This document shows positions 2-8,673 of a DNA stretch of 64,000 bases, one piece after another. Below the pieces are notes generated by a model, which did no database searches, was not told the DNA's origin, and saw only the letters and a list, made by a program, of their open reading frames with translations. Source of the stretch: Bacillota bacterium (GTDB lineage Bacteria > Bacillota > UBA994); the NCBI GenBank assembly GCA_009773495.1, contig WSXW01000001.1:1-64000 (forward strand), read 5' to 3'. Numbering within the stretch: the stretch's first letter is position 1; each line of letters starts with the position of its first letter. The translations under genes were made by a program, and so were the position numbers.

Positions 2-562
2 ATAACACGTGCGTCAGTACGCACTAACTCTCCGCAGCAATTCGGTGTAACAGGACTTTTTCATTCTCTGATGGTGGGGGTCACCCCCATGAGTGTCTTT
101 AGTGTTAATAAGGGACTCCTCTCTGGAACCATAAATGTCCTTACTAGCCCGAATGAGGCTCAGGGAAACGGTACGCTTGAAGAGGTTAAGTTGCGTTATG
201 TGGGAAGATGGTATCCTGTGTATATCGGTGCTGCCGCCTTCGATATTCGTCATGACACGGGAGACAGAAGCCTGTTATTATCGGAAAGCGCGATAATCAA
301 GTATAGTCGTTTCGAGGAACCCTATGAAATGCGTTTAGTTAACGTGTCTAAGGAGAGAGTATCAGTTCTCGGCATTCAGGCCCCCGGGGTCACATATTTG
401 GGCGATCCAGTTGTAGTCGAGCCCGGGAGTACAGTAACCCTGGCTGTTAAAATTGACGCAAATTATGATATGGTACGCCCCTGGATTCTGTGTAGCACAT
501 CCACGGGTGAACACATGATACCCGGTGCCTCGTGCTATAGGATACCAGCCCATCAGAGGTGA
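2..562 (+). CDS. Hypothetical protein, probably the 3' end of a gene entering from the left
   Basis: The frame is open from base 2 to the stop at 560-562, so the gene probably starts outside the window. Internal ATGs exist at 71 and 89. The one at 89 has a G-rich stretch 8 nt upstream, but that stretch also forms a small GGGGG/CCCCC hairpin. The residues read like a beta-rich extracellular or envelope domain: alternating hydrophobics, many Val/Ser/Thr, and a PGSTVTL segment. No membrane segment is visible in this part. I do not recognise the family. A good intrinsic terminator lies 120 nt downstream on the same strand, which supports expression. It faces the bacteriocin-like operon, and no functional link is shown. 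Confidence 0.4.
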   Translation: MTRASVRTNSPQQFGVTGLFHSLMVGVTPMSVFSVNKGLLSGTINVLTSPNEAQGNGTLEEVKLRYVGRWYPVYIGAAAFDIRHDTGDRSLLLSESAIIKYSRFEEPYEMRLVNVSKERVSVLGIQAPGVTYLGDPVVVEPGSTVTLAVKIDANYDMVRPWILCSTSTGEHMIPGASCYRIPAHQR

Positions 563-1008: not shown

Positions 1009-1680
1009 TCAGACGATGCAGCCATCCACCATATTTACTCGTCTCTCACAGTGTTGCGCCAAGTCCAAATTGTGGGTCACCAATAGAAGTGTTCTACCTT
1101 CCTGCACCAACTCCATCAGAAGTCGAAACACCTCATGTCCAGTTTGAGAATCCAAAGAACCAGTCGGTTCGTCAGCCAAAATCACCTGAGGGTCACTCAC
1201 CAAAGCCCTAGCAATAGCCACTCTTTGGCGCTGACCACCGGATAGATTACGAACTTCTTCATGCATCTTGCTATCTAGGTCTACTCTCGACAATGCTTCG
1301 TGTACTCGCTTCCTGCGTTCATTTCGCCCCAGGCGCTCGGGACCATATAACAAGGGTATTTCGGCATTCTCAAGAGCCGTATAATCTTCTATTAGTGCAA
1401 AGTCCTGAACTATGTACCCGAAGAACTTACTTCTTAAGGCAGAGAGCTTGTTGTTAGAGAAGGACTTTGTATTGAGCCCCTGTATGAGCAAGTCCCCAAA
1501 AGTTGGAGACACGATGAGTCCAACCATGTTGAGCAGGGTAGTCTTACCACACCCTGAAGGCCCCGTGATAGCAATACTTTCTCCCTTGTTGATCTCAAGC
1601 GACACACCCCTAACCGCATGGGTTACCTGTTTTCCACTACAATACTCCTTGTGCAAGGATATGCAGTTAACTAATTGCAC
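1009..1680 (-). CDS. ABC transporter ATP-binding protein (MacB/LolD type, bacteriocin-associated)
   Basis: A 223-residue ATPase that would power the two permeases encoded just upstream. The P-loop GPSGCGKTT is at about 40-48, the Q-loop near 92, the signature LSGGQ at 146-150, Walker B VILADEP at 166-172 and the H-loop His at about 203. Size and motifs fit the short ATPases of the MacB/LolD/FtsE group, which includes those of lactococcin-972-type clusters. The start is GTG at 1680, overlapping the permease stop by one base, with AAGGAGTG about 9 nt upstream. It is the last gene of the operon peptide-permease-permease-ATPase. Substrate is inferred from context only; export of, or immunity to, the secreted peptide is the leading idea. 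Confidence 0.85.
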   Translation of the reverse strand: MQLVNCISLHKEYCSGKQVTHAVRGVSLEINKGESIAITGPSGCGKTTLLNMVGLIVSPTFGDLLIQGLNTKSFSNNKLSALRSKFFGYIVQDFALIEDYTALENAEIPLLYGPERLGRNERRKRVHEALSRVDLDSKMHEEVRNLSGGQRQRVAIARALVSDPQVILADEPTGSLDSQTGHEVFRLLMELVQEGRTLLLVTHNLDLAQHCERRVNMVDGCIV

Positions 1681-2792
1681 TAGTCGTCACTCCTTAAGTG
1701 TGAAACTATGTCAGTGTTATACAACCTCACCAATGGGAAACTCGCCAGGAGTATTACGAAGAGCACAAGTGGGGGTACCACTCCGATCAATCTCGGCAGA
1801 GGAATTCTAAACATGAGAAAAAGCAACCACGATACGGCAAGAATTGGCAGACTTACCAGCAAGAGGAGATAGATGACTATTCTGCTACACAAGTGCCACA
1901 TTCTTGCCCCAGAAAGCAGATGAATTGCGTATTCAGTCATGCGGCTGTCCAGGAGTTGGATCGTGTTTGTCACTATGCCTACAACCACATATACCATGGT
2001 GATGCCGAAGAAGACAAGAAGATATAGGACGCCGTAGAAGTTGCCTTGGTAATGCTGTTCGGCGTAGGCACCCAGGTCTATGGGGTTTAAAGCCATCCCA
2101 GTTTCGTTCCGCATACGTGTGACGAATTCAGACATTTCGGTTCCTGTCGGACTTATTAGGCAAGTGTTAGTAACAATCTGAACCCCGTATTCCCAGTCGT
2201 TAAAGAAATAGTCCATCATCGACTCTGCCTCAGTAAGGATGATAAGCGACTTATCCAGGCTCTTTAGACCTCCCGGCATAACATAACTAGCACCCTGCGG
2301 CAATCTGCTGCTGACCGTCAGATCTGTTGTGTTACGACGCCCAAATTCCACAGTACTCCCGACTTGTAGTGCATCAACGTCGTGCCCTATAAGCACCAAG
2401 GGCTTAGAGGACTCTTTGGAATCGTTACGTAGTTGAAAGACCTCAACAAATGCCCCCAGGCCAATAACTATATTTAAATTAGGGTAATCGCGTAGTTTGA
2501 CAGTCTCAACAACTGAGTAGCCTCGCCGGGCCTCGTCAAGCGTGGCTACCAACAATTCCTTAGCACCCTGAGAGATACGCCATTGACGCATCGTTCCAAT
2601 CTGTGGGGAGAAGAAGACTACTTTGTAGTCCGAAACTTGGTTAACGTGCCTGATATATTGTACAGAATCCACAACTTGAATAAGGGATAGGCAGCAGAAA
2701 AATATAGGCACGGTTAGCTGAATGGCAAAAAAAACAAACACGATAGGCTTTCTCCAAATATCTTTAAGCGCAAAAGCCAGCTGTGTCATCAT
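1680..2792 (-). CDS. FtsX/MacB-like permease, second of a pair
   Basis: A 370-residue membrane protein. One membrane segment lies near residues 15-37, then an extracytoplasmic domain of roughly 200 residues, then three C-terminal membrane segments: the layout of FtsX/MacB permeases. The ATG at 2792 is chosen because AAAGGTGGG lies just upstream and the start overlaps the previous gene's stop as TTATGATGA. An in-frame start at 2816 would ignore that site. In lactococcin-972-like loci a single permease of about 650-700 residues, called the putative immunity protein, is common. Here the 370- and 332-residue products could together be its split equivalent. Exact topology and role are inferred. 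Confidence 0.78.
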   Translation of the reverse strand: MMTQLAFALKDIWRKPIVFVFFAIQLTVPIFFCCLSLIQVVDSVQYIRHVNQVSDYKVVFFSPQIGTMRQWRISQGAKELLVATLDEARRGYSVVETVKLRDYPNLNIVIGLGAFVEVFQLRNDSKESSKPLVLIGHDVDALQVGSTVEFGRRNTTDLTVSSRLPQGASYVMPGGLKSLDKSLIILTEAESMMDYFFNDWEYGVQIVTNTCLISPTGTEMSEFVTRMRNETGMALNPIDLGAYAEQHYQGNFYGVLYLLVFFGITMVYVVVGIVTNTIQLLDSRMTEYAIHLLSGARMWHLCSRIVIYLLLLVSLPILAVSWLLFLMFRIPLPRLIGVVPPLVLFVILLASFPLVRLYNTDIVSHLRSDD

Positions 2793-3787
2793 AACTGACC
2801 CACCTTTGCACCCCAAAACCTTTGAGTAAAGAACGCAATAACGATTAACAGAGTACTAGAGGCAATGCCAGTTGCAATTGTAATTGGAATCCACACAAGT
2901 GAGGAGGTAAGGCCGTCAAAAAAACTCCGAAAAATCGAAGCGAACACGGTAACACCAAGCAATGATCCGATACTGACAGCGGGTAATGCTGCCGCCACTA
3001 ATCTGGCCAGCAGGGTCATTTTAGTTGCACCAAACCGGAGATGAATGGAGAAAAATGTTTCATATCGTGATAACAGTACATAGTATGCCAAGAAACAGTT
3101 AAAGTAAATGAAGATTAGTCCTGCTGTTATCGAGACAAAATACGGAGTGCGCAGAGCAGATCCTACGCTCTGTTTGGGGGGAATTACGCTGCATGTGTAT
3201 CCGTTTTTGTTTAGTAGGGCCAGTATTTCCAGAGTGGCGGCCGAGTTGCTGCTAAAGTAATACGTTCCCTGTAGGCTTGTAGTACTTGAAAAACTATATA
3301 CGTAGGACTGTCCTCTAGTATATAGAGCGTGAGCCTTACCATATACGCCCTTGACAGAAACGATTGCACCGTTAACGATGGTAGACCCATGAGTAAGCAT
3401 ACGATGCATGGGGGAGTCAAGTTTGACTAGAACCGAAGCTATCCGTTGGCCAAAGTCACCCACGGCAAAGTAATCGCCAAGAACAAGGGGTTCTAACGCG
3501 TAATAACCCGTGGGGTCATACACCCCAATTCCGTAATCGTTGTCAAGGTAAACAAGAGTTGTATCCGAATTCTTTAACAGGTCTATCATTTCGTTTGAGA
3601 TGCTTTCAATGTCTCCTGAACCTGGACCGGACTTAAGCACCCTGACAACGACAGTCTCCTCCGGTAGCCCAAATGGTACAGTGAGGGCCTGCCCTAACTG
3701 TATAACTATGTAACTAACGAATACCGCCATGGCGCACGCAAAAAATACGTTCATTAGAGCAATTATCCCAGAATGCTTATTTTTCAT
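2789..3787 (-). CDS. FtsX/MacB-like permease, first of a pair
   Basis: A 332-residue membrane protein with the same plan as its downstream neighbour: an N-terminal membrane segment, a large outer domain and three C-terminal membrane segments. The two proteins look like diverged halves of a heterodimeric transporter. An ATG at 3793 lies only 2 nt from the AGGAG sequence, while the ATG at 3787 lies at a normal 8 nt, so 3787 is preferred. Its stop overlaps the next start by 4 nt, indicating translational coupling. It probably works with the ATPase at 1009-1680 in handling the secreted peptide encoded upstream. Confidence 0.75.
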   Translation of the reverse strand: MKNKHSGIIALMNVFFACAMAVFVSYIVIQLGQALTVPFGLPEETVVVRVLKSGPGSGDIESISNEMIDLLKNSDTTLVYLDNDYGIGVYDPTGYYALEPLVLGDYFAVGDFGQRIASVLVKLDSPMHRMLTHGSTIVNGAIVSVKGVYGKAHALYTRGQSYVYSFSSTTSLQGTYYFSSNSAATLEILALLNKNGYTCSVIPPKQSVGSALRTPYFVSITAGLIFIYFNCFLAYYVLLSRYETFFSIHLRFGATKMTLLARLVAAALPAVSIGSLLGVTVFASIFRSFFDGLTSSLVWIPITIATGIASSTLLIVIAFFTQRFWGAKVGQL

Positions 3788-3854
3788 TATCATCGCTCCT
3801 GTATAAATAACGCTACCCGTTACTCCCTAAATCATCCGTAGAAATTTAGGTAGT

Positions 3855-3914
3855 TTAGTACGGCCAAATGCCTGAGCCAAAGGGTACCCAATCAAAGTTG
3901 TAGTTGAACGTGAC
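3855..3914 (-). other. In-frame extension beyond the peptide gene's amber stop
   Basis: Directly after the TAG at 3915-3917 the same frame stays open for 19 sense codons and ends at TAA (3855-3857). The encoded segment is aromatic-rich (FNYNFDW, GIWPY), similar in character to the aromatic C-terminus of lactococcin 972. Either the upstream gene has been cut short by a nonsense mutation or the amber is read through. No recoding element was identified. Confidence 0.45.
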
Positions 3915-4253
3915 CTACGGGGCAAATGGATTAAGGGTGTCCCAGTATCTCATACTCGCACTATAGATCGCGCCATCCTGTGCGTTTTGACCATAGCTAG
4001 TATACGCCCACTGTTCACCACCACCCCAACCGTTGCGATACACAAAAAACCCCCGGGCAGCATGATACCCATTATCCACATATGACGGCTGGCATTGAAT
4101 ATACCCATCGTAGATGGCTATAGAATGATGTGTAGATGTTGCATAATTGGGTCCGCCAGCCATCGCTGATAAGGCAAAAATGCTTGTCGTAGCTAAAAGC
4201 AACGCTGCAATACCTAAGAGCTTCCTGATATTCTTTCCAGTACGGGAGTTCAT
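3915..4253 (-). CDS. Secreted peptide, lactococcin-972-like bacteriocin candidate (possibly truncated)
   Basis: A 112-residue precursor with a clear Sec signal peptide: basic KNIRK, a hydrophobic core to about residue 28, then a cleavable SAMA/GG site. The mature part of about 80 residues is rich in Tyr, Trp, Gly, Asn and His, with a HHS segment near its start and a WAYTSYG...YSASMRYW stretch. The composition and the downstream permease/ATPase genes recall lactococcin 972, but identity is low and this is inference. The start at 4253 is chosen because AGGAAGGTG lies 6 nt upstream. A longer frame to 4382 has no such site and runs into intron debris. The gene ends in TAG, and the frame remains open for 19 more codons. 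Confidence 0.55.
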   Translation of the reverse strand: MNSRTGKNIRKLLGIAALLLATTSIFALSAMAGGPNYATSTHHSIAIYDGYIQCQPSYVDNGYHAARGFFVYRNGWGGGEQWAYTSYGQNAQDGAIYSASMRYWDTLNPFAP

Positions 4254-4302
4254 AAACATCACCTTCCTATCCAATACAAATATAAAGGGTAGCCTATGAT
4301 AA

Positions 4303-4330
4303 TTTTTACAAAAAAGATACGGTAAGTCAA
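4303..4330 (-). promoter_or_regulatory. Candidate SigA-type promoter of the peptide-permease-ATPase operon
   Basis: TTGACT (4325-4330) and TAAAAA (4303-4308) are separated by 16 bp, about 50 bp upstream of the peptide start. The -35 matches consensus at 5 of 6 positions and the -10 at 4 of 6. Confidence 0.45.
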
Positions 4331-4609: not shown

Positions 4610-4656
4610 CAAAAAATAAATCCGTAATCTGGTTTCGGCTACCAAACTACGGGATT
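4610..4656 (-). terminator. Possible weak terminator in decayed region
   Basis: On the minus strand AATCCCGTA pairs with TACGGATT (one bulge), with a partly paired interior, and is followed by ATTTATTTTTT. It could end transcripts arriving from the yifB remnant side. I could not match it to any riboswitch class. Confidence 0.35.
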
Positions 4657-7390: not shown

Positions 7391-7906
7391 CTAGCGTGCC
7401 CGCCTCAAGCTCGAAAGTGGCCAATAAACCCCTAAGGCCTTGCCGCGAATTTTGCTGAGCGCAACGGGACCGACAGAGGGGTCTCTGCTATCCAAACTAA
7501 CGTTGCGGTTGTCGCCCATAACGAAGACTGTTCCCTCAGGTACAACATAGGGGCCGAAGTCGACTTGCGTTACGACTGCTAGGTAGGACTCTGTCAAGGT
7601 AACGTCATCAACCATAACTTGACCGTCACGGACTTCAATAGTCTGCCCAGCAAGAGCAATAACTCGCTTAATTGAGGGCGTGGGATCTCGTTCAAACACT
7701 ATTATATCGTGAGGCTCAGGGCTAGAGAAACGATACACTAAACGATTTACAAAAACCCTTTCTCTATTCTCAAGAAAGGGATGCATAGAGATACCGTCGA
7801 CTATTATGGCATCTAGCAAAAAACTGCGCACTATTAAGGCAAAAACTACAGCCCACAAAATAGCTTTACCCCACTCCATGAACTCCTTGCGTACGGTCTC
7901 AGACAA
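7391..7906 (-). CDS. lepB: Type I signal peptidase, copy 1
   Basis: A 171-residue membrane-anchored serine protease that cleaves Sec signal peptides. One N-terminal membrane segment is followed by the catalytic Ser in SMHP and Lys in KRVIA, then the conserved GDNRxxSLDSRDPSVG box. The start is taken as TTG 7906: GAGGTG lies 6 nt upstream, and the resulting N-terminus aligns with that of copy 2 up to EWGKA. A GTG at 7915 overlaps the binding site. The two copies are adjacent paralogues separated by a repeat-filled spacer. This one has several less conserved positions around the active site. Confidence 0.93.
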   Translation of the reverse strand: MSETVRKEFMEWGKAILWAVVFALIVRSFLLDAIIVDGISMHPFLENRERVFVNRLVYRFSSPEPHDIIVFERDPTPSIKRVIALAGQTIEVRDGQVMVDDVTLTESYLAVVTQVDFGPYVVPEGTVFVMGDNRNVSLDSRDPSVGPVALSKIRGKALGVYWPLSSLRRAR

Positions 7907-7964
7907 ACAAATCACCTCATATACGTCACACGCTAATCAATGTAAACAAAAACAACTACCCAAT

Positions 7965-8092: not shown

Positions 8093-8620
8093 CTAGTGCG
8101 GAATCAACCCTAATGAAGGTAAGGGCCAGAATATAACCATCGCTTTGCCCTTGATATTAGCGATAGGAACAAAGCCAACAGAGGGATCTCTTGAATCTAA
8201 ACTAAAATTGCGGTTGTCTCCCATGACAAACAGTGCGTCTTCAGGCACCACCTCAGGGCCAAACGCTCCATGAGTCGGTGTCTTAAGATAAGGCTCCTCG
8301 ATAGCTTGCCCATCCACAAAGACCTTACCATTCTTGACCTCTACGGTTTGCCCTGGCACGGCCACAACGCGTTTTATAAAATCTCGATCTGGTTCTTTGG
8401 GATAGCGAAACACAATTACATCTTGTGGCTCAGGACCCTTAAACCGGTAGACAAGTTTATTAACCAGCACGCGCTCTTCGTCATGTAGAGAGGGCTGCAT
8501 AGAGTTGCCATCGACTATATATACCTCAACTAAAAACATCCTAATAACTAAAGCCAGTATGATCGCTAGGGCAAATGCCTTGCCCCATTCAAATAACTCG
8601 CCCTGCCATGTCTTTGCCAT
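8093..8620 (-). CDS. lepB: Type I signal peptidase, copy 2
   Basis: A 175-residue signal peptidase I with one N-terminal membrane segment, catalytic Ser in SMQP, catalytic Lys in FIKRVVA, and the GDNRxFSLDSRDPSVG box. ATG 8620 is used: GAGGGGGAG lies at a normal distance, and the upstream extension to 8650 runs into the rplS terminator. It lies just after rplS, the standard position of lepB in Firmicutes, so it may be the ancestral copy with the 7391-7906 gene as its duplicate. Both keep all catalytic residues, so both are probably active. Confidence 0.95.
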   Translation of the reverse strand: MAKTWQGELFEWGKAFALAIILALVIRMFLVEVYIVDGNSMQPSLHDEERVLVNKLVYRFKGPEPQDVIVFRYPKEPDRDFIKRVVAVPGQTVEVKNGKVFVDGQAIEEPYLKTPTHGAFGPEVVPEDALFVMGDNRNFSLDSRDPSVGFVPIANIKGKAMVIFWPLPSLGLIPH

Positions 8621-8648
8621 GACGCTCCCCCTCTCTGGTGCATAGCAC

Positions 8649-8673
8649 AAAAAGGGACCGGTAGGTCCCTTTT
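8649..8673 (-). terminator. Terminator after rplS
   Basis: AGGGACC (8653-8659) pairs with GGTCCCT (8664-8670) around GGTA, with A- and T-rich flanks allowing action in either direction. It lies between the rplS stop and the start of lepB copy 2. Confidence 0.8.

What the first reader, a model, noticed from the sequence alone, without database searches (positions are those of the whole stretch)
1009..4253. Lactococcin-972-like bacteriocin operon with a split permease
Seen: a secreted aromatic-rich peptide, two FtsX-like permeases overlapping as TTATGATGA and a short ABC ATPase in one operon with its own candidate promoter. Known: lactococcin-972-type loci pair a small Sec-exported peptide with a large (about 650-700 residue) multi-span protein and a short ABC ATPase. 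Inference: this is a divergent member in which the large permease is two genes.
Basis: partly seen in the sequence, partly recalled or inferred. Interest (0 to 1): 0.62.

Follow-up and report, generated by a model that had tools for sequence, protein, structure and literature searches.

The report
Secreted peptide with paired-permease ABC transporter
A small exported protein sits in one operon with two related membrane permeases and an ATPase, an arrangement that most likely makes a cell-wall-active bacteriocin plus its self-protection pump; it works like the lactococcin-972 type but is a separate, unnamed family, and in this genome the peptide gene is cut short by a stop codon.

Summary
The set recurs in the same order in other Bacillota: intact in five loci, with a peptide cut by the contig end in a sixth, so it is a real conserved operon. 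Two points change the picture. (1) Relatives show that the peptide should continue for about 20 residues; here an in-frame TAG removes the most conserved C-terminal strand, whose code is still readable downstream. Several other loci keep the transporter but have lost or broken the peptide. (2) By sequence it is not a lactococcin-972 member: the peptide matches neither the family profile nor real Lcn972 peptides, and the ATPase falls outside the Lcn972 clade and below that family's cut-off. Remote comparison does place permease 1 nearest the N-half and permease 2 near the C-half of the large Lcn972 permease, unlike other MacB/FtsX permeases of this genome. Because relatives also have two genes, this is better called unfused than split. 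Best reading: an Lcn972-like bacteriocin/immunity locus of a new family, with the toxin gene probably dead here. Activity is untested.

The parts
3915..4253 (-). Secreted peptide ORF, 112 aa as read: signal segment about residues 12-30, mature part from about residue 33 (GGPNYATS...). Truncated relative to its homologues.
   Evidence: homologues at 52-73% over the mature part in G002, G004, G218, UBA5286 and 42% in UBA5496
3915..3917 (-). In-frame TAG at codon 113, absent from all homologues
   Evidence: (profile match 1-133 with '1 TAG' inside)
3858..3914 (-). Still homologous C-terminal tail, VTFNYNFDWVPFGSGIWPY, followed by TAA; out of translation unless the TAG is read through
   Evidence: the profile contained this tail itself; the profile did not
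2789..3793 (-). Permease 1, FtsX/MacB-type, 334 aa
   Evidence: its family profile matches MacB 5gko (E 0.0018); UBA5286 homologue passes the Pfam FtsX cut-off
1680..2792 (-). Permease 2, FtsX/MacB-type, 370 aa
   Evidence: homologous to permease 1, P 2e-6; sub-threshold Pfam FtsX
1009..1680 (-). ABC ATPase, 223 aa, MacB/LolD-type
4302..4330 (-). Candidate promoter (TTGACT-17-AAAAAT); not above chance
4622..4652 (-). Terminator-like hairpin that would separate the operon from the upstream rnhB-yraN unit

Best explanation
A bacteriocin/self-immunity locus of a family of its own. Inferred mechanism: the peptide is exported by Sec, cleaved, and folds outside the cell into a small beta-sandwich that binds a surface target, most likely a lipid II-cycle intermediate as Lcn972 does. 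Permease 1 and permease 2 form a MacB/LolCDE-like heterodimer on a dimer of the ATPase; ATP hydrolysis moves their extracellular domains to pull the peptide off its target, which protects the producer. Shown here: the conserved operon, signal segment, MacB/FtsX relationship of permease 1 and its homology to permease 2, purifying selection, and loci where the transporter persists after the peptide is lost. Inferred: antibacterial activity, target and protective role. In this genome the peptide is probably inactive, because the stop codon removes the last strand and the FNYxFxW motif, so the cell would be an immune non-producer.
For: Same four genes in the same order in G002:C3, G004, G218, UBA5286 and UBA5496 (in UBA5496 permease 2 and ATPase are fused), and in G006 with the peptide cut by the contig end. 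In 399 genomes of the phylum the peptide profile finds 8 genomes clearly, and all 8 also match the permease 2 profile. Transporter without intact peptide: window (TAG), G002:C29 (none), G265 (none), G352 (none, permease 1 broken), G069 (only a C-terminal remnant before permease 1), and peptide/permease debris in G023. In pneumococcus the Lcn972-like scb locus shows the same: 27.5% of genomes keep only scbBC (PMC11796350). Both here and in Lcn972 loci the peptide is more conserved than the permeases. Six strands predicted. No Omp85 hit in this genome, so it looks monoderm and an outward-acting pump is sensible. Lcn972 orf2-orf3 are described as immunity genes (PMC4055356); BceAB-type transporters appear to act by target protection (PMC7038271).
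Against: No sequence or significant fold link from the peptide to any bacteriocin. No activity data. The same genetics would fit a peptide that is an accessory of the transporter. The stop codon rests on one MAG consensus. Loss of the peptide is counted on few, related, draft genomes.
Confidence: 0.58

Rival explanations
1. The peptide is an accessory or sensor subunit of a MacB/Bce-type detoxification pump (as proposed for YsaD in Lactococcus, or YxeA-type proteins), which defends against foreign cell-wall peptides; nothing is a bacteriocin.
For: YsaD is a secreted peptide in an operon with a Bce-like transporter and seems to modulate signalling while being dispensable for resistance (PMC7438565). 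Strong conservation and purifying selection of the peptide suit a subunit. Several loci lack the peptide yet keep an intact transporter, as for a dispensable accessory.
Against: No two-component system was seen beside the loci inspected. The peptide is the first gene of the operon, as in Lcn972 loci, and is repeatedly broken while the transporter is kept, which suits a costly toxin better. BceB has ten spans; here there are two permeases of about four spans.
Confidence: 0.22
2. The transporter exports the peptide or another product (for instance a lipid or lipopeptide); the peptide is a structural or adhesive surface protein.
For: LolD is the best NCBIfam model for the ATPase (211 bits against a cut-off of 307.75); MacB relatives export peptides; TIGR03608 is named 'putative bacteriocin export'.
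Against: The peptide has its own signal segment, so it needs no dedicated exporter; streptococcin B is secreted without ComAB or BlpAB (PMC11796350). No MacA-like adaptor gene in the operon. No Omp85 hit, so no sign of an outer membrane for Lol-type sorting.
Confidence: 0.12
3. A true but very diverged lactococcin-972 family member, as the reader proposed (a special case of the best explanation; the two overlap).
For: Gene order, permease halves collinear by remote similarity, predicted beta structure, C-terminal FNYxFxW resembling the Lcn972 end FYYNFW by eye.
Against: All profile tests negative; ATPase outside the Lcn972 clade; 2LGN (Lcn972) not among the 50 best structural matches listed.
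Confidence: 0.25
4. The TAG is read through or is an assembly error, so the window's peptide is full length and active.
For: The 19 codons after the TAG are still well conserved; the amino acid at that position varies in homologues (A, R, P, K).
Against: No pyrrolysyl-tRNA synthetase over the cut-off in this genome; permease 2 in the same operon ends with TAG. Recent mutation explains the conserved tail as well.
Confidence: 0.2

Closest known systems
Lactococcin 972 operon (lcn972-orf2-orf3, pBL1; TIGR01653/TIGR01654/TIGR03608) and relatives (streptococcin B, mediterrocin)
   Same: Order peptide - permease - short ABC ATPase; Sec-type signal; mature part of about 65-100 aa of beta type; permease made of two homologous FtsX-like halves; peptide more conserved than permease; loci that keep only the transporter
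   Different: Peptide, permeases and ATPase all fail the family models; two permease genes instead of one; no YxeA gene (present in the staphylococcal and Macrococcus loci, absent from pBL1)
MacB/LolCDE/FtsEX (type VII) ABC transporters
   Same: FtsX-like permease with one span, extracellular domain and three spans; permease 1 profile matches MacB 5gko; ATPase nearest LolD/L_ocin_972_ABC/MacB models; two different permeases with one ATPase, as in LolCDE
   Different: No adaptor protein and no outer membrane marker; a secreted peptide gene leads the operon
BceAB-type resistance modules with a secreted peptide (YsaDCB)
   Same: Secreted small peptide beside an FtsX-type transporter; protection against cell-wall-active peptides including Lcn972
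   Different: Two short permeases instead of one ten-span permease; no two-component system nearby
Pneumococcal Pep27-Vex123 (from memory, not tested)
   Same: Peptide with two FtsX-type permeases and one ABC ATPase
   Different: Pep27 is a 27-residue peptide; gene order differs; beside a two-component system

Membership tests
Lactococcin 972 family | Peptide matches TIGR01653 / PF09683 | tested here: not met
   No hit up to E 10 for the window peptide and four intact homologues; TIGR01653 absent from 300 genomes of the phylum while it rings in Lactococcus
Lactococcin 972 family | Mature peptide profile similar to real Lcn972 peptides | tested here: not met
   hhalign gives only a signal-peptide match; mature against mature scores within the shuffled controls
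Lactococcin 972 family | Beta-sandwich fold like 2LGN | tested here: inconclusive
   AlphaFold2 model with six strands, pLDDT about 83 in the mature part, a second model without signal peptide only 55; no significant Foldseek match
Lactococcin 972 family | Large permease of TIGR01654 / DUF1430 | tested here: not met
   no hit; only remote profile similarity, N-half to permease 1 (P 6.5e-5) and C-half to permease 2 (P 2.9e-4), with own-genome MacB/FtsX controls at P 0.18-0.77
Lactococcin 972 family | ATPase of TIGR03608 | tested here: not met
   201 bits against a cut-off of 254.85, second to LolD; separate clade in the tree
Lactococcin 972 family | Gene order peptide - permease - ATPase, Sec signal | tested here: met
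Lactococcin 972 family | Kills by binding lipid II, with transporter-mediated immunity | not testable with these tools
   needs assays
MacB/FtsX-type (type VII) ABC transporter | FtsX-like permease domain plus MacB/LolD-type ATPase | tested here: met
   Pfam FtsX 28.1 bits (cut-off 25.5) for the UBA5286 permease 1 homologue; MacB 5gko E 0.0018; ATPase; permease 2 itself only sub-threshold but homologous to permease 1
BceAB-type module | Ten-span permease with adjacent two-component system | tested here: not met
   Two permeases with about four spans each and no two-component genes in the loci read

The most novel reading that the evidence does not exclude
A separate, undescribed family of Sec-exported beta-sandwich bacteriocins of deep-branching Bacillota, each with a heterodimeric MacB-type immunity pump encoded as two genes, and part of a wider theme in which unrelated secreted peptides (for example those in L054 and L055) are paired with two-permease pumps; the Lcn972 permease of Bacilli would be the fused version of this pump.
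Probability: 0.4. Interest if true: 0.55.

Novelty: new variant of a known kind. Interest (0 to 1): 0.42.

Why it matters
[quoted passage not shown] A family in which the permease is two genes, with natural loci that have lost the peptide, gives a clean system to test whether such pumps protect the producer and which half recognises the peptide. It also extends this kind of antagonism to uncultured Bacillota (one relative is in a MAG named CROMO, which from memory is a serpentinite observatory).

Tried and rejected
Pyrrolysine reading of the TAG: no PylS over the cut-off, rejected. Genome-wide contig scan with permease 1 alone found nothing; the permease 2 alignment found five loci. Plasmid and viral collections hold no relatives. 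PDB sequence search with the peptide profile: only a chance ribosomal hit. Foldseek with both peptide models: nothing significant; the model without signal peptide is poor and was not relied on. Rfam: group II intron pieces next to the loci in G002:C29 and G004, none in the window. G143 peptide hit (E 4e-4, inside a 392-aa frame) judged chance.

Full report
Observation. The peptide (start 4253) has a hydrophobic signal segment; both permeases have one N-terminal and three C-terminal hydrophobic segments; the ATPase is ordinary and complete. Overlaps of 4 and 1 bases between permease 1, permease 2 and ATPase indicate one operon. The promoter claim is no better than chance.

The operon is real. 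Searches of related genomes and the loci taken from them give the same order, peptide - permease 1 - permease 2 - ATPase, in G002:C3 (L018), G004 (L020; JAGXSS010000096, Peptococcaceae MAG), G218 (L047), UBA5286 (L026/L049) and UBA5496 (L027/L051, permease 2 fused to the ATPase), and in G006 (L021) with the peptide cut by the contig end. Pairwise identities of the mature peptide (35-73%) exceed those of the permeases (16-56%), and dN/dS is well below 1 for all genes. The same trend is seen in the Lcn972 loci fetched from plasmids.

The peptide is cut short. In the intact homologues the protein runs on through a stretch like VTFNYxFxWVPxG. In the window a TAG stands at codon 113 and the next 19 codons still read VTFNYNFDWVPFGSGIWPY. 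A profile built without the window aligns straight through the TAG. In the AlphaFold2 model of the G002 homologue this stretch is the last of six strands. The genome has no PylS over the cut-off, and TAG ends permease 2 in the same operon, so normal termination is expected. The simplest reading is a recent nonsense mutation, or a consensus error of the draft genome.

Transporter without toxin. G002:C29 (L019), G265 (L048) and G352 (L050) have no peptide next to the transporter; G069 (L022) keeps a short C-terminal remnant just before permease 1 (E 0.007 in a search of 230,081 residues); G023 (L023) holds a fusion of peptide and permease debris. A pneumococcal Lcn972-like locus behaves alike, with 27.5% of genomes holding only scbBC (PMC11796350). 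I take this as the main, indirect, evidence for toxin and immunity roles. A dispensable accessory peptide such as YsaD (PMC7438565) would give a similar pattern, which is why the confidence is moderate.

Comparison with lactococcin 972. Real loci were fetched from plasmids: pBL1 and others, order peptide - permease - [YxeA] - ATPase. The peptide family shows no similarity to them by curated profile or by profile-profile comparison. The Lcn972 permease consists of two homologous halves (P 7e-5), as permease 1 and permease 2 are homologous (P 2e-6). The N-half matches permease 1 best (P 6.5e-5); the C-half matches permease 2 (P 2.9e-4) about as well as the two-gene family of L052/L053 (P 2.5e-4); five MacB/FtsX permeases of this genome give P 0.18-0.77. 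The controls are single sequences, hence weaker profiles, so this is suggestive only. The nearest relatives of the permeases are those of L052/L053 (P 2e-11 and 2e-21). The ATPase tree puts the window family in its own clade (100/99), joined by L052/L053 (98/95) and not by Lcn972 ATPases. The two-permease state is thus the rule outside the Bacilli loci, and 'unfused' describes it better than 'split'. The direction of the change was not tested by a tree of permeases.

Mechanism. Sec export and folding of the peptide outside; a heterodimeric MacB-fold pump that works by moving extracellular domains (mechanotransmission is my term from general knowledge of MacB; the review PMC5985334, start of abstract, describes a unique mechanism) and frees the target, as proposed for BceAB (PMC7038271). 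Every step after the gene anatomy is inferred.

Verdict. A genuine, conserved and, in the libraries searched, unnamed peptide/transporter family that works like a lactococcin-972 locus but does not meet its definition, with the peptide probably inactivated in this genome.

Noticed in passing
L054 5488-9025 (+ tandem copy 1088-4035) and L055 1492-4802: A second operon type: secreted peptide (HYSRAQL...VADSGRVW...SPW...YYGN), two MacB/FtsX permeases (about 325 and 430 aa) and an ATPase nearest TIGR03608 (222 bits, below cut-off). Peptides match no family. In G069 the transporter part is duplicated, and only one copy has a peptide in front.
   Followed up: partly
L051 3384-5327 / L027 2503-4446: In UBA5496 permease 2 is fused to the ATPase (647 aa).
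   Followed up: partly
L052 3721-6683, L053 3907-6869: Two-permease plus ATPase operons without a visible peptide gene, nearest kin of the window's permeases; partial similarity to ADOP duplicated permeases.
   Followed up: partly
L059 4385-6356: In a Streptococcus salivarius Lcn972 locus the permease is annotated as two overlapping ORFs (253 and 417 aa); could be a frameshift or a natural two-gene form.
   Followed up: no
L019 770-1053, L020 1-117: Group II intron pieces flank two of the relatives' loci; several loci also lie at contig ends, as if next to repeats.
   Followed up: partly
window 7391-7915 and 8093-8650: Two neighbouring type I signal peptidase genes with about 74% DNA identity over a short stretch.
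   Followed up: no
window 71-562: ORF at the contig start, plus strand, no family match.
   Followed up: no
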